Source: Spirochaetales bacterium (lineage in GTDB: Bacteria; Spirochaetota; Spirochaetia; DSM-2461). Taken from it: a stretch of DNA of 55,025 nucleotides. The notes below the pieces were generated by a model. The model saw nothing but the letters and a program-made list of their open reading frames with translations. It was not told the origin of the DNA and ran no database searches. The translations under genes and the position numbers were made by a program. The stretch is from NCBI GenBank assembly GCA_016936555.1, contig JAFGXR010000116.1, positions 1-55,025 of the forward strand, written 5' to 3'. This document shows positions 33,714 through 52,312 of the stretch, piece by piece. Every line of letters begins with the position of its first letter. The stretch's first letter is position 1.

Positions 33714-34838
33714 GTAATCCCTCGGGACCCTTTTATTTATGGCGCAGGTCACTTCATAGGGAATTGTGCCTGTCAATTCGCCCAGATCCGCCGCATCGGG
33801 ACTGATGCCGTCAGGTCCGAATAGAATCACCAAATCATCGGTCGTCACATCGGTTTCAGGTCCCAGGTCGATCATAAACTGGTCCATGCAGACCCGTCCC
33901 GCAACGGGGTAGAGTTTCCCCCGGATCGCGACGTGAGCCTTTGATGAAAGGAGTCTGTTGAAGCCATCGGCGTAACCGGCCGGAATGGAGGCTATCCAGG
34001 TCTCCCCCGATGCCGTCCAGGTCCTTCCGTACGAAATAGAGGTTCCCTTTTTTACCTTTTTTATAAAAGCGGGACGCGATACAAACTCCATGACGGGCTT
34101 GAAATCAGCTGTGCTTTTATCCATTCTCTGATCGGGATAGTAGCCGTAGAGACAGATTCCCGGACGTACCATGTCGAAGTGGGCTTCGGGGTGGGCGATT
34201 ATCGCTCCCGAATTGGCGGCATGGAGAATCCCCGGATCGATTCCTTTGTTCTTGATAGTTTTTATCGTATCGGAGAAGATCTGAATCTGTTTTCTTGTAA
34301 AATCAATATCTTCCGGATCGGGGCTGTCCGAAACGGGAAAGTGAGTGCATACGCCTTCGAGATTCACTCCTGTAAGGGAGTGGATGACTTCAGCCAGATC
34401 TGCTGCTCCATCCGGCTGAACGCCGATACGGCCCATGCCCGTATCAATTTTTATATGAACGTTGACTGATCTGTTCTGAAGGCCGGCTTCGTTGCTGATT
34501 TTTTTCACATACTCCCGGTCGGCGACGAACGGTGTCAATCCGTAGGAGACAATCTGCTCTATTTCCGGGCCTGTCGCAATGCTGAACAGGATTATAGGCG
34601 CTTTTATCCCGGCTTCGCGAAGAATCATGGCTTCGGGAACCGTCGCGACCGCCAGAAAGTCTACACCCCATTTCAGAGCTCTTCTTGATACTTCAACGGC
34701 TCCGTGACCGTAGGCATCGGCTTTCACGGCGACGCAGATTTTCCTCTTCGGACCGACCAGAATCCTTATACAGTCCAGATTGTGGTCCAGGTTTTTCAGA
34801 TGTATTCTCGCTCTTGTCGCTCTTCTGTTCTCGTTCAT
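33693..34838 (-). CDS. alr: alanine racemase
   Basis: 381 residues, usual Alr length. The PLP Lys is in CVAVKADAYGHG (K39), and the catalytic Tyr of the C-terminal barrel is in SISYGRTW (about 267). VAGRVCMDQFMIDLG and IPYEVTCAINKRVPR complete the family signature. It interconverts L- and D-alanine for peptidoglycan. It sits 124 bp downstream of arcC on the same strand, beside the ornithine operon. Because thiolysis of the D-ornithine-derived intermediate yields D-alanine plus acetyl-CoA in this pathway, a second job in recycling D-alanine is plausible (inference). Confidence 0.95.
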   Translation of the reverse strand: MNENRRATRARIHLKNLDHNLDCIRILVGPKRKICVAVKADAYGHGAVEVSRRALKWGVDFLAVATVPEAMILREAGIKAPIILFSIATGPEIEQIVSYGLTPFVADREYVKKISNEAGLQNRSVNVHIKIDTGMGRIGVQPDGAADLAEVIHSLTGVNLEGVCTHFPVSDSPDPEDIDFTRKQIQIFSDTIKTIKNKGIDPGILHAANSGAIIAHPEAHFDMVRPGICLYGYYPDQRMDKSTADFKPVMEFVSRPAFIKKVKKGTSISYGRTWTASGETWIASIPAGYADGFNRLLSSKAHVAIRGKLYPVAGRVCMDQFMIDLGPETDVTTDDLVILFGPDGISPDAADLGELTGTIPYEVTCAINKRVPRDYLKTQDL

Positions 34839-36125: not shown

Positions 36126-36157
36126 CACTTATCGGACATTACATATGGAGATTCAAT

Positions 36158-37210
36158 ATGGAAAACATTAAAGTTTTATTATGGGGCTTCGGAGCCATGG
36201 GAAGCGGCATGGCGGAAATGCTTCTGAAAAAGAAAGGCGTTGAGATCGCCGGTGTCTGTGATATGCACCCCGACCGCGTGGGAAAAAGCATGTACGATGT
36301 GCTGGGTGTTGAAAAGGGAAACAAACCTGAAGTGATTATTAATGGCGACATAAAAGCTCTCGTTTCAGAAGGCTGCGTCGATATCGCTCTGCTCGCGACA
36401 GACTCCTTTACGGCCAAAGCATTCGATAAAATCAAATTTCTCCTCGAGAACAAGCTGAATGTCATTTCCACGGCCGAAGAGATGTCCTATCCCCGGGCCG
36501 GTGAACCCGAACTGGCAAAGCAGCTCAATGAAATTGCAAAGGCCAACGGTGTAACGGTCCTGGGAACCGGAATCAACCCCGGTCTGATTATGGACCTTCT
36601 GGTCGTTACGCTGACAGGCGCCTGTATCGATGTGGATGAAATCGAGGCTGAAAGAGTCAACAGCCTGTCTCCCTTCGGTCCCGCCGTCATGGAAGAGCAG
36701 GGCGTAGGGATCTCTCAGGCGGAATTTGCTGACGGCGTGAAGAACGGCACACTGGCCGGCCATGTGGGATTCAACGAATCGGTCAATATGATCGCCGATG
36801 CCATCGGATGGAAACTGAGCGAGCCGGTCAAACAGTCCATGGAGCCCATCGTTTCCAATGTATACAGGAAAACAAAATATGTTGAAGTTCAGCCCGGAAA
36901 TATCGCCGGCTGCGCCATGAAGGGATTCGGTTACGTAGATGGAGAGGAAAAGATCCGCATGATCCATCCCCAGCAGGTCGAACCGCAGCTCGAAGGGACC
37001 GATACGGGAGACTATATCCGCATCAAGGGAACTCCCGATATTCATATGGCCATTAAACCGGAAGTTCCCGGCGGGATCGGCACCATCGCCATGTGCGTGA
37101 ATATGATCCCCCATGTTATCAACGCCAGAGCGGGACTCAAGACAATGATCGATTTACCCGTTCCGAGAGCCATTATGGGAGATATGAGAGACCTTATTGA
37201 AAGAGATTGA
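36158..37210 (+). CDS. ord: 2,4-diaminopentanoate dehydrogenase
   Basis: 350 residues, a member of the dihydrodipicolinate-reductase-like dehydrogenases. The N-terminal Rossmann motif is LLWGFGAMGSGMAEM (about 6-20); the substrate part includes GTGINPGLIMDLL and VNSLSPFGPAVMEEQGVGIS. It oxidatively deaminates (2R,4S)-2,4-diaminopentanoate to 2-amino-4-ketopentanoate with NAD(P)+, step 3 of oxidative ornithine degradation. ATG at 36158 has GGAG 8 bp upstream. As first gene of the operon it is followed by ortAB, oraSE, a MutL-like protein and orr, which confirms the assignment. Confidence 0.95.
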   Translation: MENIKVLLWGFGAMGSGMAEMLLKKKGVEIAGVCDMHPDRVGKSMYDVLGVEKGNKPEVIINGDIKALVSEGCVDIALLATDSFTAKAFDKIKFLLENKLNVISTAEEMSYPRAGEPELAKQLNEIAKANGVTVLGTGINPGLIMDLLVVTLTGACIDVDEIEAERVNSLSPFGPAVMEEQGVGISQAEFADGVKNGTLAGHVGFNESVNMIADAIGWKLSEPVKQSMEPIVSNVYRKTKYVEVQPGNIAGCAMKGFGYVDGEEKIRMIHPQQVEPQLEGTDTGDYIRIKGTPDIHMAIKPEVPGGIGTIAMCVNMIPHVINARAGLKTMIDLPVPRAIMGDMRDLIERD

Positions 37211-39013: not shown

Positions 39014-39362
39014 CTTTGAACAGAGAAGAAAACATCTGAAAGATCTGACGGAAAAACAGCTCGAAGAGAGATTCTGGGAGCTTTGCGAAAAACTGATGGA
39101 CCCCATCGTCGATATGGCGGCTGTGCATACATCTCCTTCGATCGAGAGATCGGTGCTTCTGAGAATGGGATTCTCCAGCATCGAGAGCAAGGCCATAGTG
39201 GAAAAGGCGATCGATAAAAACCTGATCCACCATGGAGCCGGCCATCTTGTCTACAAGCTGGCCCGGACCAAAGGGATGGAAATCCGCGAAGCGGGGCTGA
39301 AGCTGGCTGAGAACGAACTCTGGGAGGAGACCTCTTCCCTCTTTCAGGGAGGAGCGAAATAA
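38997..39362 (+). CDS. oraS: D-ornithine 4,5-aminomutase S subunit
   Basis: 121 residues, all-helical small subunit of the adenosylcobalamin- and PLP-dependent D-ornithine 4,5-aminomutase. Typical regions are PIVDMAAVHTSPSIERSVLLRMGFSS (about 38-62) and HHGAGHLVYKLARTKG (about 80-95). GTG start with AGGAAGGA upstream, inside the end of ortB. Its TAA overlaps the oraE ATG (TAATG), as expected for an obligatory subunit pair. Confidence 0.93.
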   Translation: MERQDDFEQRRKHLKDLTEKQLEERFWELCEKLMDPIVDMAAVHTSPSIERSVLLRMGFSSIESKAIVEKAIDKNLIHHGAGHLVYKLARTKGMEIREAGLKLAENELWEETSSLFQGGAK

Positions 39363-41575
39363 TGGATAAGCTGAAAAAAAACGAAAAGATCAACGTCCCG
39401 GAAATCCTGAAGGATCTGGAAAACTACCGGCCCCGGCGCCGCCATTGGGAATGGAGAAAGGGTCAGGGCGAGAAACGGCAGATCGGGAAATTCGAGTTCT
39501 ACGATACTTCTGAAAATCTGGAACAGTACGAAGCTCTTCCGGGCGGTCATTACTTCAATAATATCGCTCCCCAGCCGACCAGTACGATCACAACGGAAAT
39601 CGCTTCCGGCCGCTTTGAAGACGATATCAGACGGATGAGAATGGCGGCCTGGCATGGCGCTGACCACCTTATGGTTATCCGGACAGCCGGTCAGAGCCAT
39701 ATGGACGGCCTCATCGAAGGGACTCCCCAGGGAATAGGCGGCGTCCCCATCTCGAGAAAACAACTCAGGGCCCAGAGAAAGGCGCTCGATCTGATCGAAG
39801 ATGAAGTGGGAAGACCGATCAACTATCACTCCTACGTCTCCGGTGTCGCCGGTCCCGAAATCGCCGTTCTCTTTGCGGAAGAAGGTGTGAACGGAGCCCA
39901 TCAGGACCCCCAGTACAACGTTCTCTACAGAAATATCAATATGGTCCGATCTTTCGTCGACGCGGCCGTGGCCAAGAAGGTCATGGCCTGGGCGGGGATC
40001 GCTCAGATCGACGGAGCCCACAACGCCAACGCCACGGCACGCGATGCCTGGAAGGTTATGCCCGAGCTGATGGTACAGCACGGACTGAACTCCATGTTCT
40101 CCGTGAAAGCGGGCATGAAAAAGGAAAATATCTGTCTCTCCACGGTTCCCCCGACAGCGCCTCCCGCGCCCTGTATGCGTCTTGACCTGCCCTACGCCGT
40201 AGCGTTGAGAGAGGTTTTCTCCGAGTACAAGATGAGAGCCCAGCAGAACACCAAATACATGGGATCATCAACCCGGGAAGCGACGGTCACCCATACGCTC
40301 AACCTGCTCATTTCCAAAATGACCAGGGCGGAGATCCAGTCTACCATCACTCCCGACGAGGGGAGAAACGTTCCCTGGCACATCTACAATATCGAGGGTA
40401 CCGATACGGCCAACCAGGCCTTCGCCGGCATGGACGGCCTGACGGAAATGCTCGAGATCAAGCGGGACAAGGGCGAGCTGGCCGATAAGGTCAGGGAGCT
40501 GAAAGAGCGCGCCGTTCTCTATCTGGAGGAGATGCTCGAGGTCGGCGGTTATTTCAATGCGGTCGAGCAGGGGTTCTTCGTCGACTCCGGTTACTACCCC
40601 GAGAGAAACGATGACGCCATCGTCCGCCATATCGACGGCGGTATCGGAGTGGGAACTGTTTACGACAGAGCCGAGGATTACATGGCTCCCGTAACGGCTC
40701 ATTTCGGATATAACAATCTGGCCCAATACGGACCGGAAGCGGAAAAGGACCCCTCGTCGCTTATCGGCGGCGGAACCTTCGAGAAACCGGAAAAGATCAT
40801 CTTCATCGATGAGCTCGATGAAGTGGACAACGTCTACACCAGAATGGAGGAGACAAAGGATTTCCGCGAAAAGAACATCGTGAAACCCGAAATGGAATGG
40901 CTCGGCGACGGCGTCGTGCAGACAACCATGTTCCTCCCCACCGATGAGCGGACCGCCTATTATGCGGCCATAGAAGTCGGCAAGAAAATGGGACTCGAAG
41001 AGGTTGAGGTCATCCATACGGAAGTGCTTCAGGCCGCTGAGGGAACCAGGGTGGAGATCAAAGGGAAATTCCAGCATGTGATCGACCTGGACACGCTGGT
41101 CGTACCTCCCGCTCCGGAAGTCATGACTTTTGAGGAGCTCTGCGCGGCTGTGAAAGCGAAGCCGATGAAAATCGTTGCGGCGACGGTCGGGCAGGATGAA
41201 CACTCTGTGGGGCTGCGTGAAGTTATCGATATCAAACACGGCGGAATCGAGAAGTTCGGAATCGAGGTTCACTACCTCGGAACCTCCTGCCCCATCGAGA
41301 AGCTTGTCGACGCGGCCATCGAGCTCAATGCCGACGGTATACTCGCCTCGACCATTATTTCTCACGATGATGTACACTATAAGAATATGAAGAAGATTCA
41401 CGACTACGCCGTGGAAAAAGGCGTTCGTGAAAAACTGATCCTCTGTGCCGGCGGGACACAGGTGACTCCCGATATCGCCAGAGAAAACGGTGTGGACCAG
41501 GGATTCGGAAGAGGATCCAACGGTACGCAGGTCGCCACCTTCCTCGTGAAGAACAGGGAAGAGAGAGGTCTGTAA
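39362..41575 (+). CDS. oraE: D-ornithine 4,5-aminomutase E subunit (B12 and PLP)
   Basis: 737 residues. The N-terminal ~590 form the PLP-binding TIM-barrel part (GADHLMVIRTAGQSHMDGL, YNVLYRNINMVRSFVDAAVAKKVMAWAGIAQIDGAHNANA). The C-terminal Rossmann-like cobalamin domain has the base-off/His-on motif DEHSVG (about 620-625) and NADGILASTIISHDD, GGTQ later. It moves the terminal amino group of D-ornithine to C4, giving 2,4-diaminopentanoate. The required adenosylcobalamin could come from the PduO enzyme encoded at 5.3 kb. Confidence 0.96.
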   Translation: MDKLKKNEKINVPEILKDLENYRPRRRHWEWRKGQGEKRQIGKFEFYDTSENLEQYEALPGGHYFNNIAPQPTSTITTEIASGRFEDDIRRMRMAAWHGADHLMVIRTAGQSHMDGLIEGTPQGIGGVPISRKQLRAQRKALDLIEDEVGRPINYHSYVSGVAGPEIAVLFAEEGVNGAHQDPQYNVLYRNINMVRSFVDAAVAKKVMAWAGIAQIDGAHNANATARDAWKVMPELMVQHGLNSMFSVKAGMKKENICLSTVPPTAPPAPCMRLDLPYAVALREVFSEYKMRAQQNTKYMGSSTREATVTHTLNLLISKMTRAEIQSTITPDEGRNVPWHIYNIEGTDTANQAFAGMDGLTEMLEIKRDKGELADKVRELKERAVLYLEEMLEVGGYFNAVEQGFFVDSGYYPERNDDAIVRHIDGGIGVGTVYDRAEDYMAPVTAHFGYNNLAQYGPEAEKDPSSLIGGGTFEKPEKIIFIDELDEVDNVYTRMEETKDFREKNIVKPEMEWLGDGVVQTTMFLPTDERTAYYAAIEVGKKMGLEEVEVIHTEVLQAAEGTRVEIKGKFQHVIDLDTLVVPPAPEVMTFEELCAAVKAKPMKIVAATVGQDEHSVGLREVIDIKHGGIEKFGIEVHYLGTSCPIEKLVDAAIELNADGILASTIISHDDVHYKNMKKIHDYAVEKGVREKLILCAGGTQVTPDIARENGVDQGFGRGSNGTQVATFLVKNREERGL

Positions 41576-41590
41576 TATAAAAGAGGCATT

Positions 41591-42961
41591 GTGAAAGTAG
41601 ATGTCTTAACTGCCGAGATAGGCAGCACCACTACAGTTGTTAACGCCTTTGTCGGAATGGGAACAGCGGAGCCCCGCCTTGCCGGGCAGGGTTTCGCCCC
41701 CACTTCCGTACTGGAGGGCGATGTCACGGTGGGGCTGGAAGGCGCCATCGATCATTTAAAAAAGAATCTCAAAACAGTAGAACTCTCCTGGGATCGTTTT
41801 CTCGCCTCCAGCAGCGCCGCCGGAGGGCTGCGCATGACCGTTCACGGGCTCGTTTACGATATGACGGTCCGGGCGGCGAAGGAGGCGGCCCTCGGCGCGG
41901 GAGCCAATATCCATCAGATCACGGCGGGCCGGTTGAGGCGCACCGATCTGAAAAGGCTGGTCGAGGTCAGACCCAATATCATCATGATTGCCGGCGGGGT
42001 GGATTACGGTGAGCGGGATACGGCCCTGGACAATGCGGAGAAAATCGCCGAACTCAATCTGGGCATTCCCGTCATCTATGCCGGCAATATTCAGAATCAC
42101 GATGAGATCCGGGAAATCTTCCTGGAGTCGGGGACAAAGCTCTATATTGTCGATAATGTCTACCCTTCGATCGACCGGCTCGAAGTGCTGCCGGCGCGAC
42201 GGGTTATACAGAAAGTCTTTGAAGAGCACATCATCCATGCTCCCGGTATGGAAAAAATCCGCAGCCTCGTCGACGGTCATGTCATTCCCACGCCGGGAGC
42301 CGTTATGGAGGCGACCCGGTTCCTCAGGAATGAACTGGGCGATCTGGTGACCTTCGATGTGGGGGGGGCGACGACCGATGTCCATTCAGTGACCGACGGG
42401 TCCGAGGAGATCAGCCGGATACAGCTCTCTCCGGAGCCGGACGCGAAGAGAACCGTGGAAGGGGATCTCGGCGTCTATGTAAACCGTATGAATGTCTATG
42501 AGCTGGCTGACAAAAAACGCCTTGCACTGAGATCGGGATGGCCGGAAGAAGCTCTGGAAGAAGCCGTCCGGGCCCTCCCTCCTGTTCCTCAAACAGATAG
42601 AGAGAAAAAGCTTGTCGGCGAACTGACCTATACGGCGTTGAAGATCGGACTTCACCGCCATGCGGGGAAATACCGGGACTCCTTTGCGAGCGGCGGAAAA
42701 AAGACCATGGCCGAAGGGCGTGATCTCACGGCTCTCAAATATATCATCGGGACAGGCGGGGCTCTGACCCGTCTGGGAATCGGTTCCGAACTGATCCGCG
42801 AGGTCTTTGCCGACGGCCATAAATTCGACCTGCTCCCCCCCACTCTCCCGAAGGTCCTGATTGATCAGACCTATATCATGGCTTCTCTGGGCGTTCTGTC
42901 GACGGAATATCCCGAAGATGCCGCGAAACTTTTTGAATACTATCTGGAGGATAGAAACTGA
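41591..42961 (+). CDS. MutL/GlmL-type reactivase for the aminomutase
   Basis: 456 residues of the MutL/GlmL family, actin-like ATPases found with B12 mutases. The N-terminal phosphate loop is AEIGSTTTVVNAFV (about 8-21), a second is FDVGGATTDVHSV near 257, and the adenosine motif IIGTGGALTRLG is near 386. It is thought to release damaged cobalamin from, or otherwise service, OraSE (role inferred from family and position). GTG start 15 bp after oraE with GAGG; its stop overlaps the orr ATG. Confidence 0.9.
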   Translation: MKVDVLTAEIGSTTTVVNAFVGMGTAEPRLAGQGFAPTSVLEGDVTVGLEGAIDHLKKNLKTVELSWDRFLASSSAAGGLRMTVHGLVYDMTVRAAKEAALGAGANIHQITAGRLRRTDLKRLVEVRPNIIMIAGGVDYGERDTALDNAEKIAELNLGIPVIYAGNIQNHDEIREIFLESGTKLYIVDNVYPSIDRLEVLPARRVIQKVFEEHIIHAPGMEKIRSLVDGHVIPTPGAVMEATRFLRNELGDLVTFDVGGATTDVHSVTDGSEEISRIQLSPEPDAKRTVEGDLGVYVNRMNVYELADKKRLALRSGWPEEALEEAVRALPPVPQTDREKKLVGELTYTALKIGLHRHAGKYRDSFASGGKKTMAEGRDLTALKYIIGTGGALTRLGIGSELIREVFADGHKFDLLPPTLPKVLIDQTYIMASLGVLSTEYPEDAAKLFEYYLEDRN

Positions 42962-44772
42962 TGCCCGGTCCGGAAATTCATGTCGATATAAAAAAAATCA
43001 GGGAAAACACGAAAACCCTGGTCGATTTCTGCCGTTCCCGGGGGATATCCGTCACCGGCGTCACAAAGGTAACCTGCGGAATGCCCATGGTGGCTCAGGC
43101 CATGCTCGACGGCGGCGTCGCCTCCATCGGGGAATCGAGAATCGAAAACATCCGGCGGCTCAGGTCCAGCGGTATAAACGCGCCGGTTATGATGCTGCGC
43201 ATTCCGCCTCTTTCCCGGGTGGAGGAAATTGTCACGTCCGTCGATATCAGCCTCAATTCGGAGCTGTCGGTTATCCGCGCTCTTTCCGAAGCGGCTGAAA
43301 AAAAAGGAAAGGTTCACAAGGTCATTCTGATGGTCGACCTCGGCGATCTCCGCGAAGGAATCTGGCCTACCGATCTCCTCGATGTGGCCCGCGAAGTCAT
43401 CGAGCTGCCCGGAGTCGAACTGACGGGGCTGGGGACCAACCTCACCTGTTTCGGCGGGGTTCTTCCTTCGAGAAAAAATATGGGAGAGCTGGTCGGTTAT
43501 GCCGAGAAGATTGAAGAGGCATTCGGCATCGAATTGAAGATCATCTCCGGCGGGAACTCCTCTTCTCTTCCTCTTTTAATGGAAGGGGGGATGCCGAACA
43601 GGGTCAATCATCTCAGGCTGGGTGAATCGATCGCTCTGGGCCGTGAAACTGTCAACGGCACAATCTGGCCGGGCTGCCATCATGACGCCTTCCAGCTTTC
43701 CGCCGAAGTGATCGAGCTGAAGAAGAAGCCGTCAGTCCCCATCGGCGAAACGGGAATGGACGCATTCGGCGGGAAACCGGTTTTTTCCGACAGAGGAGAT
43801 ATCCTGAGAGCCATTCTCAGTGTGGGACGCGAAGATGTCGTCGTCGACAGCCTGGTTCCCGTTGACAGAAAGGTTTCCATTCTGGGGGCTTCGAGCGATC
43901 ATCTCCTGGTCGATGTCACAGAATCGAGCCGGCCGCTGAAGCTCGGCGATAAAGTGAACTTCAATCTGAATTACGGTGCCCTTTTAGCCGCCATGACCTC
44001 CAGTTACGTAAAAAAAATACCTTTTACAGGAGACGATAGTCCCATGAAGTCAGGAAAAACTCTTCTTCTCGGCAATTCCCCCACTTTCAAAGAGGAAACT
44101 CTCCTCAGTCACTTGAAGGAAATGGGGTTCGAATATGAAATCTCGGAGGAATCCATAAATGACGGCATGATCGCCCGGACCATAGGAGAGAATATCATTC
44201 CTTTGATCGGCGGGTCAGAAAACAAGACCGTCGAAGCGATTAAGGGCATGGCATCGGCTCTGAAACAGTCCGGTCTGCTTATTTTCGCTCCCGAGGCGGC
44301 TCTCTTGAAAGAGGATTCCCATGGGGCCGACAGAACATTTCTGGCGGATATACTCGGTTTCAACGGCGGGGATTTGAATCTCTCGAGCCGGATTTCGCCG
44401 GAAAGCACCGTTGTTATCGGTTTGCGTCACGCCCAGAAGAGGGAAGTGGAACTGATCCGGGATCATAACATCCAGGTTTACACCATGGAGGATATCGATC
44501 TGCTGGGCATGCGCGAAGTTATGATCAACTCCCTGAGGAAGGCGACAACCGGAACGGAAGGTTTTTATGTCCGCCTCAGCACCGATGTAATCGGGGCGGA
44601 AGGGGAGGGGATTACCTTCCGGGAAGCCCATCTGGCCATGGAAATGGTAGCCGATTCGGCGCGGATGAAAGCTTTCGATATTTCCGGTACGCCCGATAAG
44701 AGCTGGATCAACGATGAGCGCCTCTGCAGTCTTGTCGAATCGGCTTACGGAAAGCGGATTCTCAAACTGTAA
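42961..44772 (+). CDS. orr: ornithine racemase fused to a degenerate arginase/agmatinase-like domain
   Basis: 603 residues; stand-alone ornithine racemases are about 355. Residues 1-355 are the PLP alanine-racemase-like barrel of Orr (PLP Lys in VTGVTKVTCGMP, about 39; IGESRIENIRRL; GGNSSSLPLLMEGG). It makes D-ornithine for OraSE. Residues ~360-600 follow the ureohydrolase order: IIPLIGGSENKT where GGDH is expected, LIFAPEAALL for the DAHxD strand, DSHGADRTFLADILG, VVIGLRHAQKREVELI, YTMEDIDLLGM, LSTDVIGAEGEGITFREAH for SxDxD...GLTxREA, and KAFDIS. Metal-binding His/Asp positions are mostly replaced, so hydrolysis is unlikely; a ligand-sensing or structural role is possible. Racemase call firm; C-terminal call from pattern only. 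Confidence 0.88.
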   Translation: MPGPEIHVDIKKIRENTKTLVDFCRSRGISVTGVTKVTCGMPMVAQAMLDGGVASIGESRIENIRRLRSSGINAPVMMLRIPPLSRVEEIVTSVDISLNSELSVIRALSEAAEKKGKVHKVILMVDLGDLREGIWPTDLLDVAREVIELPGVELTGLGTNLTCFGGVLPSRKNMGELVGYAEKIEEAFGIELKIISGGNSSSLPLLMEGGMPNRVNHLRLGESIALGRETVNGTIWPGCHHDAFQLSAEVIELKKKPSVPIGETGMDAFGGKPVFSDRGDILRAILSVGREDVVVDSLVPVDRKVSILGASSDHLLVDVTESSRPLKLGDKVNFNLNYGALLAAMTSSYVKKIPFTGDDSPMKSGKTLLLGNSPTFKEETLLSHLKEMGFEYEISEESINDGMIARTIGENIIPLIGGSENKTVEAIKGMASALKQSGLLIFAPEAALLKEDSHGADRTFLADILGFNGGDLNLSSRISPESTVVIGLRHAQKREVELIRDHNIQVYTMEDIDLLGMREVMINSLRKATTGTEGFYVRLSTDVIGAEGEGITFREAHLAMEMVADSARMKAFDISGTPDKSWINDERLCSLVESAYGKRILKL

Positions 44773-44844: not shown

Positions 44845-45531
44845 ATGGTAGCCGATGATATCGCTCTGCAGATCGAAAAAGCCATTTTAAGCGGTTCCAT
44901 CGAAAAAGGAACGAAGCTTCCCCCGGAAAGAAAGTTGGCGGAACAGTACGGCGCCAGCCGGACGACCGTCAGACAGGCCATTAAAAATCTTGAACAGCTG
45001 GGGCTCGTGGAAACCCTTCCCCAGAGCGGTACGTTTGTCAGCGACTATCTCCAGGATGCGTCGCTCGATCTTCTTATTCATATGATGAAAGATCCCGAAA
45101 GCTGGGATCCCGCCACACTTTACGCCCTGCTCGAAGCCCGTAAGGTTATCGAGCTCTTCGCTTTATCCAAAGCTATGGCATCCCTTAATGAGGATGACCT
45201 GAAAACCCTGAGAGATCTGGCATCGGGGCTCCGTGCGGATAATCCTCACGACTCGGCGGAAATGGATTACAAACTTCATTACCATATAATGAAAATGTCC
45301 TCAAACATCGCTTTTCTCCTCATTTTCAATTCGTTCAAACCGGTTTACCGCTATCTGACCGATCTCTTTTTCAGCAGCGAAGAATCCCTGAAAACTGTTA
45401 TGACTCAGCATCAGAACCTGATCGGGGCTTTTGAAAAGAGAGATGAAAAAAAGGCGGAAGAAATCATGAAAGAGATACTCGCATTCGGAGAGACAACAGT
45501 AAAGGAATATATCAATGGAAACAGGCATTAA
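44845..45531 (+). CDS. GntR family regulator, FadR subfamily
   Basis: 228 residues. N-terminal winged helix (DIALQIEKAILSGSIEKGTKLPPERKLAEQYGASRTTVRQAIKNLEQLGLVE, about 3-55) with the GntR signature, then the FadR-type helical FCD effector domain (EARKVIELFALSKAMASLNEDDL, and metal-ligand-like D and H residues in MDYKLHYHIMKMS). FCD domains bind small carboxylates, often through a metal. It starts the operon of the glycyl radical enzyme, overlapping it by 17 bp, so the ligand is probably that enzyme's substrate or product (inference). Confidence 0.92.
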   Translation: MVADDIALQIEKAILSGSIEKGTKLPPERKLAEQYGASRTTVRQAIKNLEQLGLVETLPQSGTFVSDYLQDASLDLLIHMMKDPESWDPATLYALLEARKVIELFALSKAMASLNEDDLKTLRDLASGLRADNPHDSAEMDYKLHYHIMKMSSNIAFLLIFNSFKPVYRYLTDLFFSSEESLKTVMTQHQNLIGAFEKRDEKKAEEIMKEILAFGETTVKEYINGNRH

Positions 45532-48004
45532 GGAACCGAAAAATCTCACGCCGAGGGTCAAGTGGCTGAGAGACTATTATTTTGAAGGCACGGATCGGAA
45601 ATGGAATAATGAAAACACCTCCTGGACGACCGGAGAGGACTGGGATTTCCAGCACAATGAGCTGACTTATTACATCGTGCCCGAAACCTATCCCTTTTTA
45701 CAGACATTCAGAAGTTCATTTTCCCAGACCGCCCGGAAAGTCGAGCTCTGTGAAAATTTCCGGGAAATGTCTCTGCCCGAGCGGATCGCCTGGTTCAACC
45801 GAGAAGTGGTCGTCCGCTATCTGCCGGCGGAAATTCTCCCTGGTGATCTCATCGCCGGCGGGCGCTTCAATATTCAGACCTCTTCCTGTCTCTCTAAAAA
45901 GGAAACCCGGGAGCGGGACCGGAGAGTTTACGGGAAAAAGGGGACCCGCGCGTCCATGAAGTGGTTTCATGATCACGGCTACGGCAACAGCGGCGCCACG
46001 AGCGGGCATCTGATTCCCGGTCATAAGCGATTACTGAAAATCGGTTGGAAAGGTGTCCGGCAGGAGCTCGATGATTTCTACGGCAGGCTTTCGGAAGGGG
46101 AGAAAAAAGGGCGGAAAGGAGCACAGCTCAGAGCTATGATGACTGCGTCGACAACCGCCGTCGATCTGGCCGCCCGTTATGCCGATCTCTGCGGGGAAAT
46201 GTGTCGACAGGAAGCCGATCCCGGAAGAAAAAGAGAGTTGGAGGAAATGGAGCGGATTCTCCGTAAAGTTCCCTATAATCCCCCGGAAACTTTTCACGAG
46301 GCCCTGCAGGCTCTCTGGATCAACCATATGCTTATTATGAGCGATGAGAATTATCCCGGACCGGGCGTTTCCTTCGGACGACTGGATCAGTACCTCTATC
46401 CCTACTGGCTGAAATCCGAATCGGAAGGAATGGACCGGGAATATGCGAAAGAGATTCTCGGATGCTTCTGGGTTCATGCCAACACGGCTTATGATGCCCT
46501 TATTAAAGTGGGCGGCAACCAGGGAATCACAGCGGGCTACGGCCAGCTTCTGACCCTTTCGGGACTCGGTCCCGACGGTGAGGATAAAACGAATGATCTC
46601 ACTTATATGATTCTGGAGGTGATCGATGATCTCTCTCCCATTCTCGAGCCGAAGCCGAACATCAGGATTCACCGGAACAGTCCGGAAAAGCTGATGAATA
46701 TTATCGTAGACATGATCATGTCCAGCCAGGGCGCCCCCTTCCTGCTGAACTTTGACGAGCGCTCCATGGCGGGGATGGATGAAGAATCGAAGCGCGGCGG
46801 AATTCCCGAGCTTATCAACCGGACGAATCTGGCGGAATACGCACCTGTGGGCTGTCTCGAGAACACCATGGTCGGTAACGACCGCTCGGGAACGGTAGAT
46901 AATAACCTGAATCTCTACAAAGCCGTGGAGCTGGTTTTCGGGAACGGCCGCGATCTTTTCCCCTATTTCGATCCCATGACCGGCAAATATGAGAAAGTCC
47001 GTCAGGACGGGCCGCGAACCGGCGATCCCCTCGCTTTTAAAGCCTGGGATGAGTTCTGGGGCGCTTATGTCAAACAGACCGCTTATATCGTGAAGAAATG
47101 CGTCGATCTCTATGAGAAGTCGGAATCGCTCCGGGCTGATACGGCTCCCACGCCCTACCTCTCCTGTCTGGTTCAGGGATGTGCGGAGAAGGGGAAAGAT
47201 ATCACCGAAGGAGGTGCGGAAATCAGCTTTACAACCATGGAAGCTGTAACCTATGCTTCGACAGTCGATTCCCTTCTGGCCGTTAAATATCTGGTTTTCG
47301 ACAAAAAGGTATGCACCATGGCGGAACTGATTCAGGCTTTGAGGGACAACTGGGCCGGACATGAAATACTTCAGGCCAAGGCGAAAAACAAAGCCCCGAA
47401 GTTCGGTGTGGATGATCATGATGCCGACCGGATGGGATTTGACGTTATGAAAATCTGGACCGATGAAGTGTGGAAACATAAAACTAAATCGACGGGCCGG
47501 CAGTTCCGTCCCGGCATGCTCAGCTGGAATTACTGGGTGGGTGATGGTTTCATTCTTCCCGCCAGCCCCGACGGTCGCCCCAAAGGGTCTTTTTTCTCCA
47601 ACGCGATCTGCCCGGTCACGGGAATGGATGTGAACGGTCCCACTTCCAACAGCAATTCCGTCGGAAAAGTCCTGGGCGGCAAAACAATTGTCGATGGCGA
47701 AGAGCAGTATGTGAATATCCTGCCCAACGGAGCCAGTCATACGATCAGCTTCAATCCTTCCATCTTCGGTACCGATGACAACCGGGAGAAATTCAAAGCC
47801 TTTCTCAAGGGCTATGCGAGAAACGGAGGAACGGCCCTTCAGATCAACATGATCGACTCGGAAACGCTGAAGGAAGCTCAGAAAAATCCCGCCGATTACC
47901 GTCATCTGCTTGTCCGGGTTACGGGATACAACGCTTACTTCGTCAGCATCGGGAGAGAGCTGCAGGACGAACTGATCGCCCGTCTCAGCCACGATAAAAT
48001 ATGA
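45515..48004 (+). CDS. glycyl radical enzyme of unassigned specificity
   Basis: 829 residues. The C-terminal radical motif is RVTGYNAYFVSIGRELQDELIAR with the radical Gly at about 805. The thiyl Cys loop is VGCLENT (C about 447), a C-x-E arrangement as in dehydratase, lyase and arylacetate-decarboxylase members; the adjacent Cys-Cys of pyruvate formate-lyase is absent. Other family stretches are SGHLIPGHKRLLKIGWKGV, GNQGITAGYGQLLTLSGLGPDG and PDGRPKGSFFSNAICPVTG. The residue after GCLE (Asn instead of Pro/Thr) does not match any subgroup I know well. It is operon-encoded with its activase, a FadR-type regulator and an FMN-type protein. Substrate unknown. Confidence 0.92.
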   Translation: METGIKEPKNLTPRVKWLRDYYFEGTDRKWNNENTSWTTGEDWDFQHNELTYYIVPETYPFLQTFRSSFSQTARKVELCENFREMSLPERIAWFNREVVVRYLPAEILPGDLIAGGRFNIQTSSCLSKKETRERDRRVYGKKGTRASMKWFHDHGYGNSGATSGHLIPGHKRLLKIGWKGVRQELDDFYGRLSEGEKKGRKGAQLRAMMTASTTAVDLAARYADLCGEMCRQEADPGRKRELEEMERILRKVPYNPPETFHEALQALWINHMLIMSDENYPGPGVSFGRLDQYLYPYWLKSESEGMDREYAKEILGCFWVHANTAYDALIKVGGNQGITAGYGQLLTLSGLGPDGEDKTNDLTYMILEVIDDLSPILEPKPNIRIHRNSPEKLMNIIVDMIMSSQGAPFLLNFDERSMAGMDEESKRGGIPELINRTNLAEYAPVGCLENTMVGNDRSGTVDNNLNLYKAVELVFGNGRDLFPYFDPMTGKYEKVRQDGPRTGDPLAFKAWDEFWGAYVKQTAYIVKKCVDLYEKSESLRADTAPTPYLSCLVQGCAEKGKDITEGGAEISFTTMEAVTYASTVDSLLAVKYLVFDKKVCTMAELIQALRDNWAGHEILQAKAKNKAPKFGVDDHDADRMGFDVMKIWTDEVWKHKTKSTGRQFRPGMLSWNYWVGDGFILPASPDGRPKGSFFSNAICPVTGMDVNGPTSNSNSVGKVLGGKTIVDGEEQYVNILPNGASHTISFNPSIFGTDDNREKFKAFLKGYARNGGTALQINMIDSETLKEAQKNPADYRHLLVRVTGYNAYFVSIGRELQDELIARLSHDKI

Positions 48005-48969
48005 GTGAAATCGAACAGAGCGGCCTTGTTCTTGAAATTCAGAGAATGTCCACTGAAGACGGGCCAGGCCTGAGAACAACGGTTTTTCTCAAAGGATGCC
48101 CTCTCCGCTGTACCTGGTGTCATAACCCCGAGAGCATCTCCCCGCAGCCGCGGCTCCAGTGGATCGGATCCAACTGCATTCTCTGTGGTTCCTGCATCGA
48201 TATCTGTCCTGACGGTGCTTTGGTTTTAGCCGGGGAGAAGATTCGAATCGATTGGGATCAATGCATGGGCTGCGGAGAGTGTGTCGAAGAGTGCCCTACC
48301 AATGCCCTGGAAATTCTGGGGAAGAGATGGACCAGCGGAGAACTGGTGGAGGAACTGGTCAAGGATGCGGCATTTTTCGAGGAGTCGGGCGGCGGAATCA
48401 CCGTTTCCGGCGGGGAAGCCATGATGCAGGCCGATTTCACAAAGGCGGTCTTCCGGAAATTGAAATCCCGGGGCATCCACACAACCCTCGACACCTGCGG
48501 CATGTACAGACCGGAAAAAATGGAAGCGATCCTGCCTTATGTCGATCTGGTTCTCTTCGATTTCAAGGAGTCCGATCCTCAGCTGCACCGGGAATATACA
48601 GGCGCAGAGAGGGATATCATTTTTTCCAATTTCAGAGCTCTTATGGAATGTAAGGAAAAAGGAGCAGGACCGGTTAATTTGTGGATCAGAACGCCCATTA
48701 TCCCCGATGCCACGGCAAGGGTGGAAAATATACGGGAAATTGCCCGGTTCATCATTGATTATCAGGATCAGATTGACCGATGGGAAATCTGCGCTTTTAA
48801 CAATCTCTGCAAAGATAAATATGCCCGGCTGGGGCAAACCTGGAGGTTCGCCGAATCTCCGCTTATGAAGAAAGATGAAATGGACCGTTTTGTCCGCACC
48901 GCCGTTGAAGAGGGGTTCGACAGCGATAAAGTGCTCTGGACGGGAATGACGGCACAGGAGCGGATATGA
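48001..48969 (+). CDS. glycyl radical enzyme activase (radical SAM)
   Basis: 322 residues. The radical SAM motif is CPLRCTWC (CxxxCxxC) near residue 33-40, and STEDGPGLRTTVFLKGCPL is the activase hallmark. An inserted ferredoxin domain carries two 4Fe-4S motifs (CILCGSCIDICP about 60-71, CMGCGECVEECP about 89-100). GGGITVSGGEAMMQ is the SAM-binding GGE region. It installs the Gly radical on the enzyme encoded just upstream; the genes overlap by 4 bp (ATGA). Confidence 0.95.
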   Translation: MSEIEQSGLVLEIQRMSTEDGPGLRTTVFLKGCPLRCTWCHNPESISPQPRLQWIGSNCILCGSCIDICPDGALVLAGEKIRIDWDQCMGCGECVEECPTNALEILGKRWTSGELVEELVKDAAFFEESGGGITVSGGEAMMQADFTKAVFRKLKSRGIHTTLDTCGMYRPEKMEAILPYVDLVLFDFKESDPQLHREYTGAERDIIFSNFRALMECKEKGAGPVNLWIRTPIIPDATARVENIREIARFIIDYQDQIDRWEICAFNNLCKDKYARLGQTWRFAESPLMKKDEMDRFVRTAVEEGFDSDKVLWTGMTAQERI

Positions 48970-49987: not shown

Positions 49988-50980
49988 TTAGAGATTACCC
50001 ATCGTGGCGACCATAACCGCTTTAATGGTATGCATCCTGTTCTCGGCTTCATCGAAAACTACCGAGTGCTTGCTTCTGAAAACCTCATCGGTTACTTCCA
50101 TTTCATCGAGACCGTATTTCTCTTTGATGTCCTGACCGATTTCCGTTTCCTGGTCGTGAAAAGCGGGTAGACAGTGCATAAAGAGAACATTGTCGTTTCC
50201 GGTCTTTTTAATCATATCCATGTTCACCTGGTAGGGTTTGAGCTGTTTGATTCTCTGCTCGAACATGGCTTCCTCGCCCATGGAAACCCAAACGTCGGTG
50301 TATATGACATCGGCGTCTTTTACCGCATTGATATCTTCAGTCAATTCGATGACAGCTCCGGTCTCTTTGGCCACTTCCTTCATTTCGGCAACCAGATCTT
50401 CCGAAGGAAAGAGCTCTTTGGGAGCCAGGGCGACAAAGTGCATGCCCATTTTAGCGGCACCGATCATCAGGGAGTTCCCCATATTGTTTCTGGCATCACC
50501 GGCATAGACGAATTTTACTTTGTTCAGAGGTTTGTCGCAGTGTTCCATAACGGTGAGGAAATCGGCGAGAATCTGTGTCGGGTGATAGAGGTCTGTCAGC
50601 CCGTTCCAGACGGGAACGCCGGCGTGTTTGGCCAGAAGATCGACAGTTTCCTGTTTGAAGCCTCTGAATTCGATACCGTCGTAGTATCTTCCCAGAACTT
50701 TGGCCGTATCTTCAACCGATTCCTTTTTTCCCATCTGGCTGTTTGTCAGGAAGGTGACGCTTCCGCCTTCATCGAATGCAGCTACTTCGAAAGCGCATCT
50801 GGTTCTTGTCGACGTTTTTTCGAAGAGCAGAACGATATTCTTTCTCTCAAGCAGATTGCCTTTTATTCCGGCTCTCTTTTTTCTCTTCAGGTCGAGAGAA
50901 AGGTCGAGCATATAGCGGATTTCATCAGGTGTGAAATCCTTCAGTGTTAAAAAGTGTCTTCCTTTTAAGTTTACCGGCAT
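49988..50980 (-). CDS. argF: ornithine carbamoyltransferase (catabolic)
   Basis: 330 residues. The carbamoyl-phosphate motif is [16 protein letters not shown] (about 54-69), the ornithine region includes [12 protein letters not shown] and the C-terminal MHCLPAFHD. In the arginine deiminase pathway it phosphorolyses citrulline to ornithine and carbamoyl phosphate. It is 93 bp downstream of arcA on the same strand, which favours the catabolic role over arginine synthesis. ATG at 50980 has AAGGAG. Confidence 0.95.
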
Positions 50981-51073
50981 TTTATAACTCCTTTCGACAC
51001 GGAGAGCTGCGATTCTTATCGTCCCGCAGGGTCTCCGGTTTCTCACTAGACTATAGTGAATTTCTTTTAAATT

Positions 51074-52312
51074 CTAGATGATGGGTGCTCTTCTCAGCGG
51101 CATGCTCATGCATCTCGGGCCGCCCCGTCCCCGGACGAGTTCGGACCCTTCTATCTCAACAACTTCCACGCCATTCTGTCTCAGAGTCTCGTTGGAAGCC
51201 TGATTCCTTCTGTAAGTGACAACCGTCCCCGGCGCGATGGCCAGAGTGTTCGTGCTGTCATTCCACTGTTCCCTGGCGGCTGTTATTTTATCTCCGCCGC
51301 CGCTCTGGATGATTTTAATGTCATCCCGTCCCAGAGTCTGTCCGAGAGCTTTTCTCAGATCATCTTTAGGTGTTATGTCAAGGAATCCCTTCTCATCGGA
51401 GGCCGGTGTGATACTGAATACTTTCAGTTCATCTTCGATTCCGGGAAAAATAGTGAACTTGTTCACATCGAGCATGGTAAAAACCGTATCGAGATGCATA
51501 TAGGCCCGCTTAAAGGGGATCTGTATGACCAGGACTTCCCTGTATCCGGAATCGGAGTCGAATAGATTTTCCGCCAGCTTTTCAATGGCCAGAGGCGATG
51601 TCCTGGCGCTGCAGCCCACGGCAATAGCCTTGTCGCTCAGAGTCAGAATATCTCCGCCTTCAATGGAGTCGGCGAACTTGTAATCGTACCACTGAGGCGG
51701 AACCGTATCCTTGATCTCTTTATGATAGCGGTTGATATAGGAAAGAAGCATGGTTTCTCTGTTCCGGGCACGGGTTTTCATCGAATTAATCGATACGCCG
51801 TTTCCTATGACCGCTCCCGGATCTCTTGTGAAATAGAGATTGGGGATGGGGTTGATATAAAAGGGATAATCATCGGTGATATAATAGGAAAGGCTTCTGT
51901 TTTCCTTTTTGTAATTGATCTCGTTTTTATGAAGGCCCGCTATAAAGATCTCCGCCAGGTCGCGGCTGTCTCTGGAATGGAGATAATCGAGTATGGCTTT
52001 TTTTTCTTTCAGTTTGGAAATTCCGGTAAAATCGGCCATCTCTCCGATAAGCTCTTCCCTGACAGAATCATCATGAAGAATTTCCTCCAGCATCTGGTCG
52101 TAATAATATACCTGCGTGCCTCTTTTGCGGAGTGCTTCGGCAAACAGATCGTGCTCCTCCCGCATTTTCCCCAGCCAGGGAATATCGTCGAAGAGAAGCT
52201 CCTCAAGGTACTGGGGAGTCAGTCTTTCGAGCTCTTTACCGGGGCGGTGAAGCAGGACGGCTTCGAGTTTTCCCACTTCCGATTTAACATTATAGAATGG
52301 TTTCTGACTCAT
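51074..52312 (-). CDS. arcA: arginine deiminase
   Basis: 412 residues. Pentein fold with signatures LLHRPGKELERLTP (about 21-34), FTRDPGAVIGNG (about 160), EGGDILTLSDKAIAVGCSARTS, HLDTVFTMLD (catalytic His, about 273) and the nucleophilic Cys near the C-terminus in RGRGGPRCMSMPLRR (C about 401). It hydrolyses arginine to citrulline and ammonia. A TTACT-N8-AGTAA operator-like site lies 12 bp upstream. No arginine/ornithine antiporter gene is in the window. Confidence 0.97.
   Translation of the reverse strand: MSQKPFYNVKSEVGKLEAVLLHRPGKELERLTPQYLEELLFDDIPWLGKMREEHDLFAEALRKRGTQVYYYDQMLEEILHDDSVREELIGEMADFTGISKLKEKKAILDYLHSRDSRDLAEIFIAGLHKNEINYKKENRSLSYYITDDYPFYINPIPNLYFTRDPGAVIGNGVSINSMKTRARNRETMLLSYINRYHKEIKDTVPPQWYDYKFADSIEGGDILTLSDKAIAVGCSARTSPLAIEKLAENLFDSDSGYREVLVIQIPFKRAYMHLDTVFTMLDVNKFTIFPGIEDELKVFSITPASDEKGFLDITPKDDLRKALGQTLGRDDIKIIQSGGGDKITAAREQWNDSTNTLAIAPGTVVTYRRNQASNETLRQNGVEVVEIEGSELVRGRGGPRCMSMPLRRAPII

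What the first reader, a model, noticed from the sequence alone, without database searches (positions are those of the whole stretch)
42961..44772. Ornithine racemase fused to a pseudo-arginase domain
The last ~240 residues of Orr follow the linear order and spacing of arginase/agmatinase landmarks (GG-x-E for GGDH, FAPEAALL for DAHxD, xSHGxD, IGLR...E, TxEDIDxxG, LSTDVIG...GITFREA, AFDIS), but the His/Asp metal ligands are mostly gone. A dead ureohydrolase attached to an ornithine-binding enzyme, in an organism that makes ornithine from arginine by the deiminase route, could be an arginine/ornithine sensor that gates racemisation, or a subunit that docks the pathway enzymes. I am not aware of a description of this fusion.
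Basis: partly seen in the sequence, partly recalled or inferred. Interest (0 to 1): 0.82.

Follow-up and report, generated by a model that had tools for sequence, protein, structure and literature searches.

The report
Ornithine racemase carrying a dead arginase
In a group of bacteria that ferment arginine and ornithine, the enzyme that flips L-ornithine to D-ornithine carries a fused arginase that can no longer do its chemistry but keeps the surface by which arginases join into trimers and can hold a free arginine, so it looks like a retired enzyme reused as an assembly or arginine-sensing part.

Summary
ORF 42961-44772 (603 aa) is a complete ornithine racemase (Orr, aa 1-352) fused to an arginase-fold domain (aa ~358-603). 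Profile, PDB-sequence and fold searches all agree. Five of six Mn ligands are lost, and so are the substrate residues equivalent to human H141 and E277.

The fusion is not a curiosity of one genome. I found 16 full-length cases: 12 in the window's lineage (probably Spirochaetota) and 4 in the class of Candidatus Zymogenus. They form one clade in both the Orr tree and the arginase tree. In Desulfitobacteriia the same operon carries orr followed by a separate, intact arginase gene. The likely history is operon neighbour, then fusion with loss of the E277 equivalent (Gly in 14 of 16 fusions, Asp in 2), then loss of Mn ligands.

The half of the dead domain that in arginases forms the trimer interface evolves about as slowly as the racemase. 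Its salt-bridge residues (human D204, R255, E256, E262) are kept almost without exception. The former active-site half evolves 2-5 times faster. My best explanation is a non-catalytic oligomerisation module with an open inter-subunit arginine pocket; sensing itself is untested.

It parallels the Fusobacterium ODC/dead-arginase fusion. The racemase fusion itself appears undescribed.

The parts
42961..44772 (+). Fused gene: ornithine racemase (Orr) + pseudo-arginase, 603 aa
   Evidence: ORF and translation; same architecture in 15 other full-length relatives
42961..44016 (+). Orr domain, aa 1-352, alanine-racemase fold; K36 at the expected PLP-lysine position
   Evidence: NF040742 473.9 bits; K36 invariant in 11 aligned Orr proteins; full-length model matches alanine racemases, best Z 30.0
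44032..44769 (+). Pseudo-arginase domain, aa 358-603
   Evidence: PF00491 over cut-off; fold Z 26.9 to Bacillus arginase
44038..44370 (+). Fast-evolving former active-site half, aa 360-470
   Evidence: dN 2-5 times that of the Orr part
44380..44769 (+). Slow-evolving half, aa 474-603, which carries the arginase subunit-interface residues
   Evidence: dN close to that of Orr in the window's sub-clade
44218..44220 (+). E420, in place of the Mn ligand His (human H101)
   Evidence: alignment tables
44287..44301 (+). A443/E445/A447, in place of Mn ligands Asp/His/Asp (human D124/H126/D128)
   Evidence: alignment tables
44578..44586 (+). S540 and D542, at the Mn ligand pair human D232/D234; only the second Asp is kept
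   Evidence: alignment tables
44686..44688 (+). G576, in place of the substrate-guanidinium Glu (human E277); Gly in 14 and Asp in 2 of 16 fused proteins
44497..44499 (+). D513, equivalent to D199 of B. caldovelox and D204 of human arginase (inter-subunit arginine site)
   Evidence: phmmer alignment to 1cev; kept in 15 of 16 fused proteins
44620..44625 (+). R554-E555, equivalent to human R255-E256 (subunit interface)
   Evidence: kept in 16 of 16 fused proteins
44641..44643 (+). E561, equivalent to E256 of B. caldovelox and E262 of human arginase (inter-subunit arginine site)
   Evidence: phmmer alignment to 1cev; kept in 16 of 16 fused proteins
36155..37210 (+). Ord, 2,4-diaminopentanoate dehydrogenase (same operon)
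   Evidence: NF040740 539.8 bits
37275..37577 (+). OrtA, 2-amino-4-oxopentanoate thiolase subunit
   Evidence: NF040739
37577..39013 (+). OrtB, 2-amino-4-oxopentanoate thiolase subunit
   Evidence: NF040741
38997..39362 (+). Putative OraS, D-ornithine aminomutase small subunit
   Evidence: position and conservation across operons; no NCBIfam match
39362..41575 (+). OraE, D-ornithine 4,5-aminomutase
   Evidence: NF040743 1351.6 bits
41591..42961 (+). Or-4, GlmL-related ornithine degradation protein
   Evidence: NF040744
49988..51046 (-). Ornithine carbamoyltransferase (ArcB-like)
   Evidence: TIGR00658 413.3 bits and NF003286, both over cut-off
51074..52312 (-). Arginine deiminase (ArcA)
   Evidence: NF002381 487.2 bits, over its cut-off of 414; TIGR01078 476.6, just under 489.1

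Best explanation
The protein is an ornithine racemase whose C-terminal domain is a retired arginase kept as a non-catalytic oligomerisation module. Shown: the domain has the arginase fold by sequence and predicted structure; its catalytic residues are lost; its arginase subunit-interface residues are kept under strong constraint; the fused proteins form one clade; and the most similar arginases sampled outside the fusions are intact ones encoded right after orr in the Desulfitobacteriia ornithine operon. Inferred: the domain trimerises (or forms hexamers) as bacterial arginases do, which together with the dimeric racemase fold would give a larger symmetric racemase assembly. Inferred with less certainty: because the chain ends where bacterial arginases end and has no counterpart of the human Arg308 tail, the Asp513/Glu561 pocket between subunits stays open and can take a free L-arginine, so arginine would strengthen the assembly or tune racemase activity when the arginine supply is high.
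For: Arginase homology and fold. Mn ligands and the equivalents of H141, N130, D183 and E277 are lost in the 12 spirochaete-lineage domains, with rare single exceptions; the E277 equivalent is Gly in 14 and Asp in 2 of all 16 fused proteins, against Glu in 77 of 77 comparison arginases. Interface residues are kept: D513 in 15 of 16, R554, E555 and E561 in 16 of 16. In the window's sub-clade the interface half has dN close to that of Orr (0.031 vs 0.023; 0.150 vs 0.137; 0.130 vs 0.189), while the former active-site half is 2-3 times faster. Of columns at least 95% conserved in the comparison arginases, the dead domains keep on average 17% before and 59% after window position 474. Free L-arginine sits between subunits in B. 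caldovelox arginase 3CEV at the place of human Arg308, which contacts Glu262 and Asp204 (PMC7925462). One clade in both trees (95/91 and 93/87). Same operon order in three bacterial groups. Orr-bearing genomes of the window's order all have the fusion (9 full-length, 1 broken at contig edges).
Against: No oligomer could be modelled here and no ligand binding tested. Interface residues can be conserved for assembly or fold stability alone, without any arginine. One fusion (G255) has Ser at the D513 position. In Fusobacterium nucleatum the isolated decarboxylase domain works without its dead arginase domain (PMC8503589, PMC12826042), so such domains can be dispensable for activity. The catalytic loss is read from sequence only.
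Confidence: 0.5

Rival explanations
1. Pure structural scaffold: the domain only trimerises the racemase, for stability or for spacing along the operon's enzymes, and binds no small molecule.
For: All kept residues can be explained by subunit packing; in the metformin hydrolase MetCaCb a metal-free ureohydrolase serves as a protein binder only (PMC11271267).
Against: It does not explain why the acid residues that hold an arginine in B. caldovelox arginase stay unchanged while the chain has no Arg308-like tail; but this is weak evidence.
Confidence: 0.3
2. Docking part: the arginase-like face binds the trimeric ornithine carbamoyltransferase (ArcB), as yeast arginase does in epiarginase control, and hands ornithine from the arginine deiminase pathway to the racemase.
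For: arcA and arcB lie beside the fused gene in the window and in several relatives; arginine deiminase is present in 13 of 13 spirochaete-lineage fusion genomes. Yeast epiarginase regulation is known from El Alami 2003, seen here only as a citation.
Against: The 4 Zymogenus-class fusion genomes have no arginine deiminase match; the contrast follows phylogeny and is not independent evidence. The residues that arginase uses to bind the carbamoyltransferase were not examined.
Confidence: 0.1
3. Degenerating passenger: the fusion once carried an arginase, and the remains are kept only because they must fold.
For: The first half of the domain diverges quickly, with loop losses; in F. nucleatum the decarboxylase works without its dead arginase domain.
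Against: The second half is about as constrained as the catalytic racemase domain in the window's sub-clade, and the fusion is kept in every Orr-bearing genome of the order. In the G009/G019/G025 sub-lineage the second half is 1.4-1.8 times faster than Orr.
Confidence: 0.09
4. The domain still hydrolyses something, with a new or metal-free site.
For: In G526 all six Mn ligands are intact, and in G490 five of six, so a changed hydrolase is conceivable there.
Against: In the window five of six ligands and the substrate residues are gone, with no conserved replacement among relatives.
Confidence: 0.01

Closest known systems
Fusobacterium ornithine decarboxylase/arginase fusion (Oda; Mothersole 2022, PMC8503589, PMC12826042)
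   Same: An ornithine-using PLP enzyme with a C-terminal arginase domain that has lost Mn ligands; the reason for keeping the dead domain is open.
   Different: The N-terminal enzyme is an aspartate-aminotransferase-fold decarboxylase for putrescine, not a racemase of D-ornithine catabolism; it stands as a single gene, not in an ornithine operon; in F. nucleatum two Mn Asp residues are replaced, here nearly the whole active site.
Ornithine racemase Orr (NF040742) of clostridial ornithine catabolism
   Same: Same racemase domain and same operon partners (Ord, OrtA, OrtB, OraS, OraE, Or-4).
   Different: About 100 Bacillota Orr proteins and most Orr proteins sampled in the window's phylum are stand-alone, about 350 aa.
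Bacterial arginase RocF (Bacillus caldovelox, B. subtilis; TIGR01229)
   Same: Fold, subunit-interface residues, chain end.
   Different: No binuclear Mn site, no substrate residues, active-site loops shortened; scores 56.5 against the arginase cut-off of 227.6.
Metformin hydrolase subunit MetCb
   Same: A metal-free ureohydrolase homologue kept for protein-protein contact.
   Different: Separate subunit in a heterohexamer with an active homologue; not fused to another enzyme.
Trypanosoma brucei arginase-like protein
   Same: An arginase fold that evolved without a Mn cluster (cited).
   Different: Stand-alone eukaryotic protein.

Membership tests
Ornithine racemase Orr (NF040742) | Full-length match over the curated cut-off of 480 bits | tested here: inconclusive
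   473.9 bits over the whole model, just under; the close relative G002 reaches 480.1 with its neighbours in the frame
Ornithine racemase Orr (NF040742) | Alanine-racemase fold with PLP lysine | tested here: met
   K36 invariant in 11 aligned Orr proteins; fold match Z 30.0; the PLP bond itself was not tested
Ornithine racemase Orr (NF040742) | Located in the D-ornithine degradation operon | tested here: met
   Ord, OrtA, OrtB, OraE and Or-4 over cut-offs; order conserved
Ornithine racemase Orr (NF040742) | Racemase activity on ornithine | not testable with these tools
   needs an assay
Arginase/ureohydrolase superfamily (PF00491), C-terminal domain | Profile match over the curated cut-off | tested here: met
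   40.5 bits against 22
Arginase/ureohydrolase superfamily (PF00491), C-terminal domain | Arginase alpha/beta fold | tested here: met
   Foldseek 1e-16 and VIA Z 26.9 to Bacillus arginases; the input alignment contained true arginases
Active arginase (TIGR01229) | Curated cut-off of 227.6 bits | tested here: not met
   56.5 bits
Active arginase (TIGR01229) | Six Mn ligands (H101, D124, H126, D128, D232, D234, human numbers) | tested here: not met
   E, A, E, A, S, D in the window
Active arginase (TIGR01229) | Substrate and catalytic residues H141 and E277 | tested here: not met
   D457 and G576 in the window
Fusobacterium ODC/arginase (Oda) | N-terminal aspartate-aminotransferase-fold ornithine decarboxylase | tested here: not met
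   The N-terminal domain is alanine-racemase fold and matches Orr
MetCb-type pseudo-ureohydrolase partner | Forms a complex with an active ureohydrolase homologue | not testable with these tools
   The genome's other ureohydrolase match is agmatinase-like, below all cut-offs; interaction needs experiment

The most novel reading that the evidence does not exclude
The dead arginase domain is an allosteric L-arginine sensor that uses not the old active site but the inter-subunit arginine pocket, and couples arginine supply to D-ornithine formation by assembling or releasing a racemase hexamer. An enzyme's oligomer-interface site would then be the part selected after its catalysis was lost, and possibly in parallel in the Fusobacterium decarboxylase fusion.
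Probability: 0.22. Interest if true: 0.82.

Novelty: new variant of a known kind. Interest (0 to 1): 0.6.

Why it matters
It gives a second case of an ornithine-consuming PLP enzyme carrying a dead arginase, with a different enzyme fold and pathway. The first case, in Fusobacterium, was published with the open question of why a dead arginase domain is kept. Here the history can be partly laid out from living relatives: operon neighbour, fusion with loss of the substrate residues, stepwise loss of the metal site. The split in conservation points to named residues (D513, R554, E555, E561) that can be tested by mutation. If arginine binding is confirmed, it would show how a pathway can keep a substrate sensor after losing the enzyme.

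Tried and rejected
(1) G526 as a bifunctional arginase-racemase: at first attractive because all six Mn ligands are intact, but it lacks the equivalents of E277, H141, N130 and N139 and falls under the arginase cut-off (184.6 against 227.6), so I do not claim it. (2) Arginine deiminase presence as the cause of decay: 13 of 13 against 0 of 4, but completely confounded with phylogeny. (3) Other fusion partners of the dead domain: in 393 genomes of the phylum it occurs only on Orr; other hits were mostly open frames of 301-391 aa, one broken, the size of ordinary arginases. (4) Orr fusions in Bacillota: none in about 100 matches; two long open frames (540 and 499 aa) were read and are not arginase fusions. 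(5) A full-length alignment with stand-alone arginases misaligned them onto Orr (A3) and was not used. (6) The full-length model gave no information on the C-terminal fold in the fold search, because racemases fill the list. (7) No paper on an Orr-arginase fusion was found; the library lacks most subscription papers, so this is not proof of novelty. (8) The interface residues of the Fusobacterium domain could not be compared, as I had no sequence of it.
Full report
WHAT IS THERE. ORF 42961-44772 (+) encodes 603 aa. Aa 4-352 match ornithine racemase Orr over its whole profile (473.9 bits, cut-off 480). Aa 415-574 match Pfam Arginase above its cut-off (40.5 against 22), and TIGR01229 arginase at 2.6e-15, far below the level of a true arginase (56.5 against 227.6 bits). 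The closest solved chains are Bacillus arginases (1cev 3.6e-13). A model of aa 358-603 has pLDDT 78 and pTM 0.80 and matches Bacillus arginases by Foldseek (1e-16) and VIA-align (Z 26.9, 2.6 A over 235 residues). Its input alignment contained true arginases, so the fold is supported mainly by the sequence matches and only secondarily by the model.

THE ACTIVE SITE IS GONE. In a 94-row alignment the six Mn ligands (H, D, H, D, D, D in 77 of 77 comparison arginases) read E420, A443, E445, A447, S540, D542 in the window. In the other 11 dead domains the replacements differ from one another, so no new conserved metal site has taken over. The residues equivalent to human N130, S137, N139, H141, D183 and E277 are lost as well, apart from one or two isolated matches at single positions. 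Human numbers are assigned from motif positions I know; PDB titles that name H141, E256, N130, D183 and R308 variants agree with that residue naming.

WHAT IS KEPT. D513, R554, E555 and E561 correspond to human D204, R255, E256 and E262. D513 is kept in 15 of 16 fused proteins (Ser in G255); the other three in 16 of 16. By the phmmer alignment to 1cev, D513 and E561 fall on D199 and E256 of B. caldovelox arginase. PMC7925462 states that human or rat Arg308 contacts Glu262 and, from the neighbouring subunit, Asp204, and that in B. caldovelox arginase, which lacks Arg308, a free L-arginine is bound at the same place. The dead domains also end without a counterpart of the Arg308 tail. Selection bias: the contig scan used peptide patterns that include D513 and E561, so the 66 stand-alone arginases, L023 and L033 (and their genomes G434, G436) and L024 (G435) are biased towards keeping them; the other 13 fused proteins and the 11 operon arginases were found through Orr or through the whole protein, which is not biased that way.

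UNEVEN CONSTRAINT. Pairwise dN in the window's sub-clade: Orr part 0.023-0.21; aa 474-603 0.031-0.234; aa 360-470 0.042-0.71. So the interface half is about as constrained as the catalytic racemase, and the former active-site half is 2-4 times faster. In the more divergent G009/G019/G025 sub-lineage aa 474-603 is 1.4-1.8 times faster than Orr and aa 360-470 3-5 times. dS is near or beyond saturation for almost all pairs, so I rely on dN. Among columns at least 95% conserved in the comparison arginases, the dead domains keep on average 17% of those before window position 474 and 59% after.

HISTORY. Full-length fusions: G000, G001, G002, G020, G011, G015, G009, G019, G025, G255, G434, G436 (window's lineage) and G526, G490, G435, G452 (class of Candidatus Zymogenus). 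In the window's order every Orr-bearing genome has the fusion (9 full-length, G003 broken at contig edges), and 4 of 4 genomes in the Zymogenus class. In the wider phylum most Orr are stand-alone. None of about 100 Bacillota matches is an arginase fusion. Fused arginase domains form one clade (95/91) and fused Orr one clade (93/87); long branches are flagged in both. In 11 Desulfitobacteriia loci an arginase gene with all six Mn ligands directly follows orr, in the same order Ord-OrtA-OrtB-OraS-OraE-Or-4-Orr-arginase as in the fusions in the three loci compared; their arginases are the sister group of the fused ones in the tree, weakly (82/76). Two further adjacent arginases were seen among 30 Bacillota loci. 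The Zymogenus-class proteins are intermediates: G526 keeps 6 of 6 ligands, G490 5, G435 and G452 4, yet all four already lack the E277, H141, N130 and N139 equivalents. I read this as loss of arginase function at or near the fusion, then loss of the metal site. That order is an inference from extant sequences. The lineage name Spirochaetota is inferred from tree neighbours L023 and L033.

SURROUNDINGS. The window carries the complete D-ornithine degradation operon, and arginine deiminase and ornithine carbamoyltransferase genes on the other strand (49988-52312). Arginine deiminase is found in all 13 spirochaete-lineage genomes searched, including G003, and in none of the 4 Zymogenus-class ones. 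So in the window's lineage ornithine can come from arginine without arginase. The only other ureohydrolase match in the window's genome is agmatinase-like and under every cut-off.

MECHANISM. Shown: arginase fold, lost catalytic residues, kept interface residues with strong constraint. Inferred: trimer or hexamer formation and its effect on the racemase. Speculative: arginine binding in the D513/E561 pocket as a signal. Rivals are a plain scaffold, docking to ArcB, a passenger, or a changed hydrolase, as listed.

COMPARISON. The nearest published case is the Fusobacterium ODC/arginase fusion, whose arginase domain is inactive in F. nucleatum because two Mn aspartates are replaced by Ser and Asn; the decarboxylase works alone and the role of the dead domain is left open (PMC8503589; PMC12826042). 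Metal-free ureohydrolase homologues with a binding role are known from MetCb (PMC11271267). Functionally it works like these at most by analogy. By membership tests it is an Orr by profile shape and context (score just under cut-off) and an arginase-superfamily member, but not an arginase.

VERDICT. Real, conserved, and a new variant of a known kind. Interest 0.6: the architecture has a published parallel, but the decay series and the sharply uneven conservation make the question of why dead arginase domains are kept directly testable.

Noticed in passing
window 45515-48004 (+) and 48001-48969 (+): Glycyl radical enzyme with its activase directly downstream of the ornithine operon and a GntR-type regulator (44845-45531). 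No NCBIfam equivalog reaches its cut-off (PFL2-3 377 against 678 bits); nearest solved structure trans-4-hydroxy-L-proline dehydratase, 9e-85. Substrate unknown.
   Followed up: partly
L145, L147-L156 (Desulfitobacteriia); L227, L244 (Bacillota): A stand-alone arginase gene directly follows orr; in the three Desulfitobacteriia operons read in full it extends the D-ornithine operon, suggesting arginase-fed ornithine fermentation.
   Followed up: yes
L141 (G526): Orr fused to an arginase domain with all six Mn ligands but without the substrate residues H141 and E277: possible hydrolase with another substrate, or an early pseudoenzyme.
   Followed up: partly
L248, G020:C10:152104-152190: A 31-aa fragment of the dead domain's C-terminus about 1.9 kb downstream of the intact fused gene, likely a partial duplication remnant.
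   Followed up: no
G009, G019, G025 against other family f1 members: Within the window's family the fused gene falls into two separate groups in both trees; G009/G019/G025 join spirochaete MAGs L023/L033 instead, so transfer or an old paralogue is possible.
   Followed up: no
window 34335-34811 (-): Part of a separate alanine-racemase-like ORF (382 aa) that weakly matches the Orr model.
   Followed up: no
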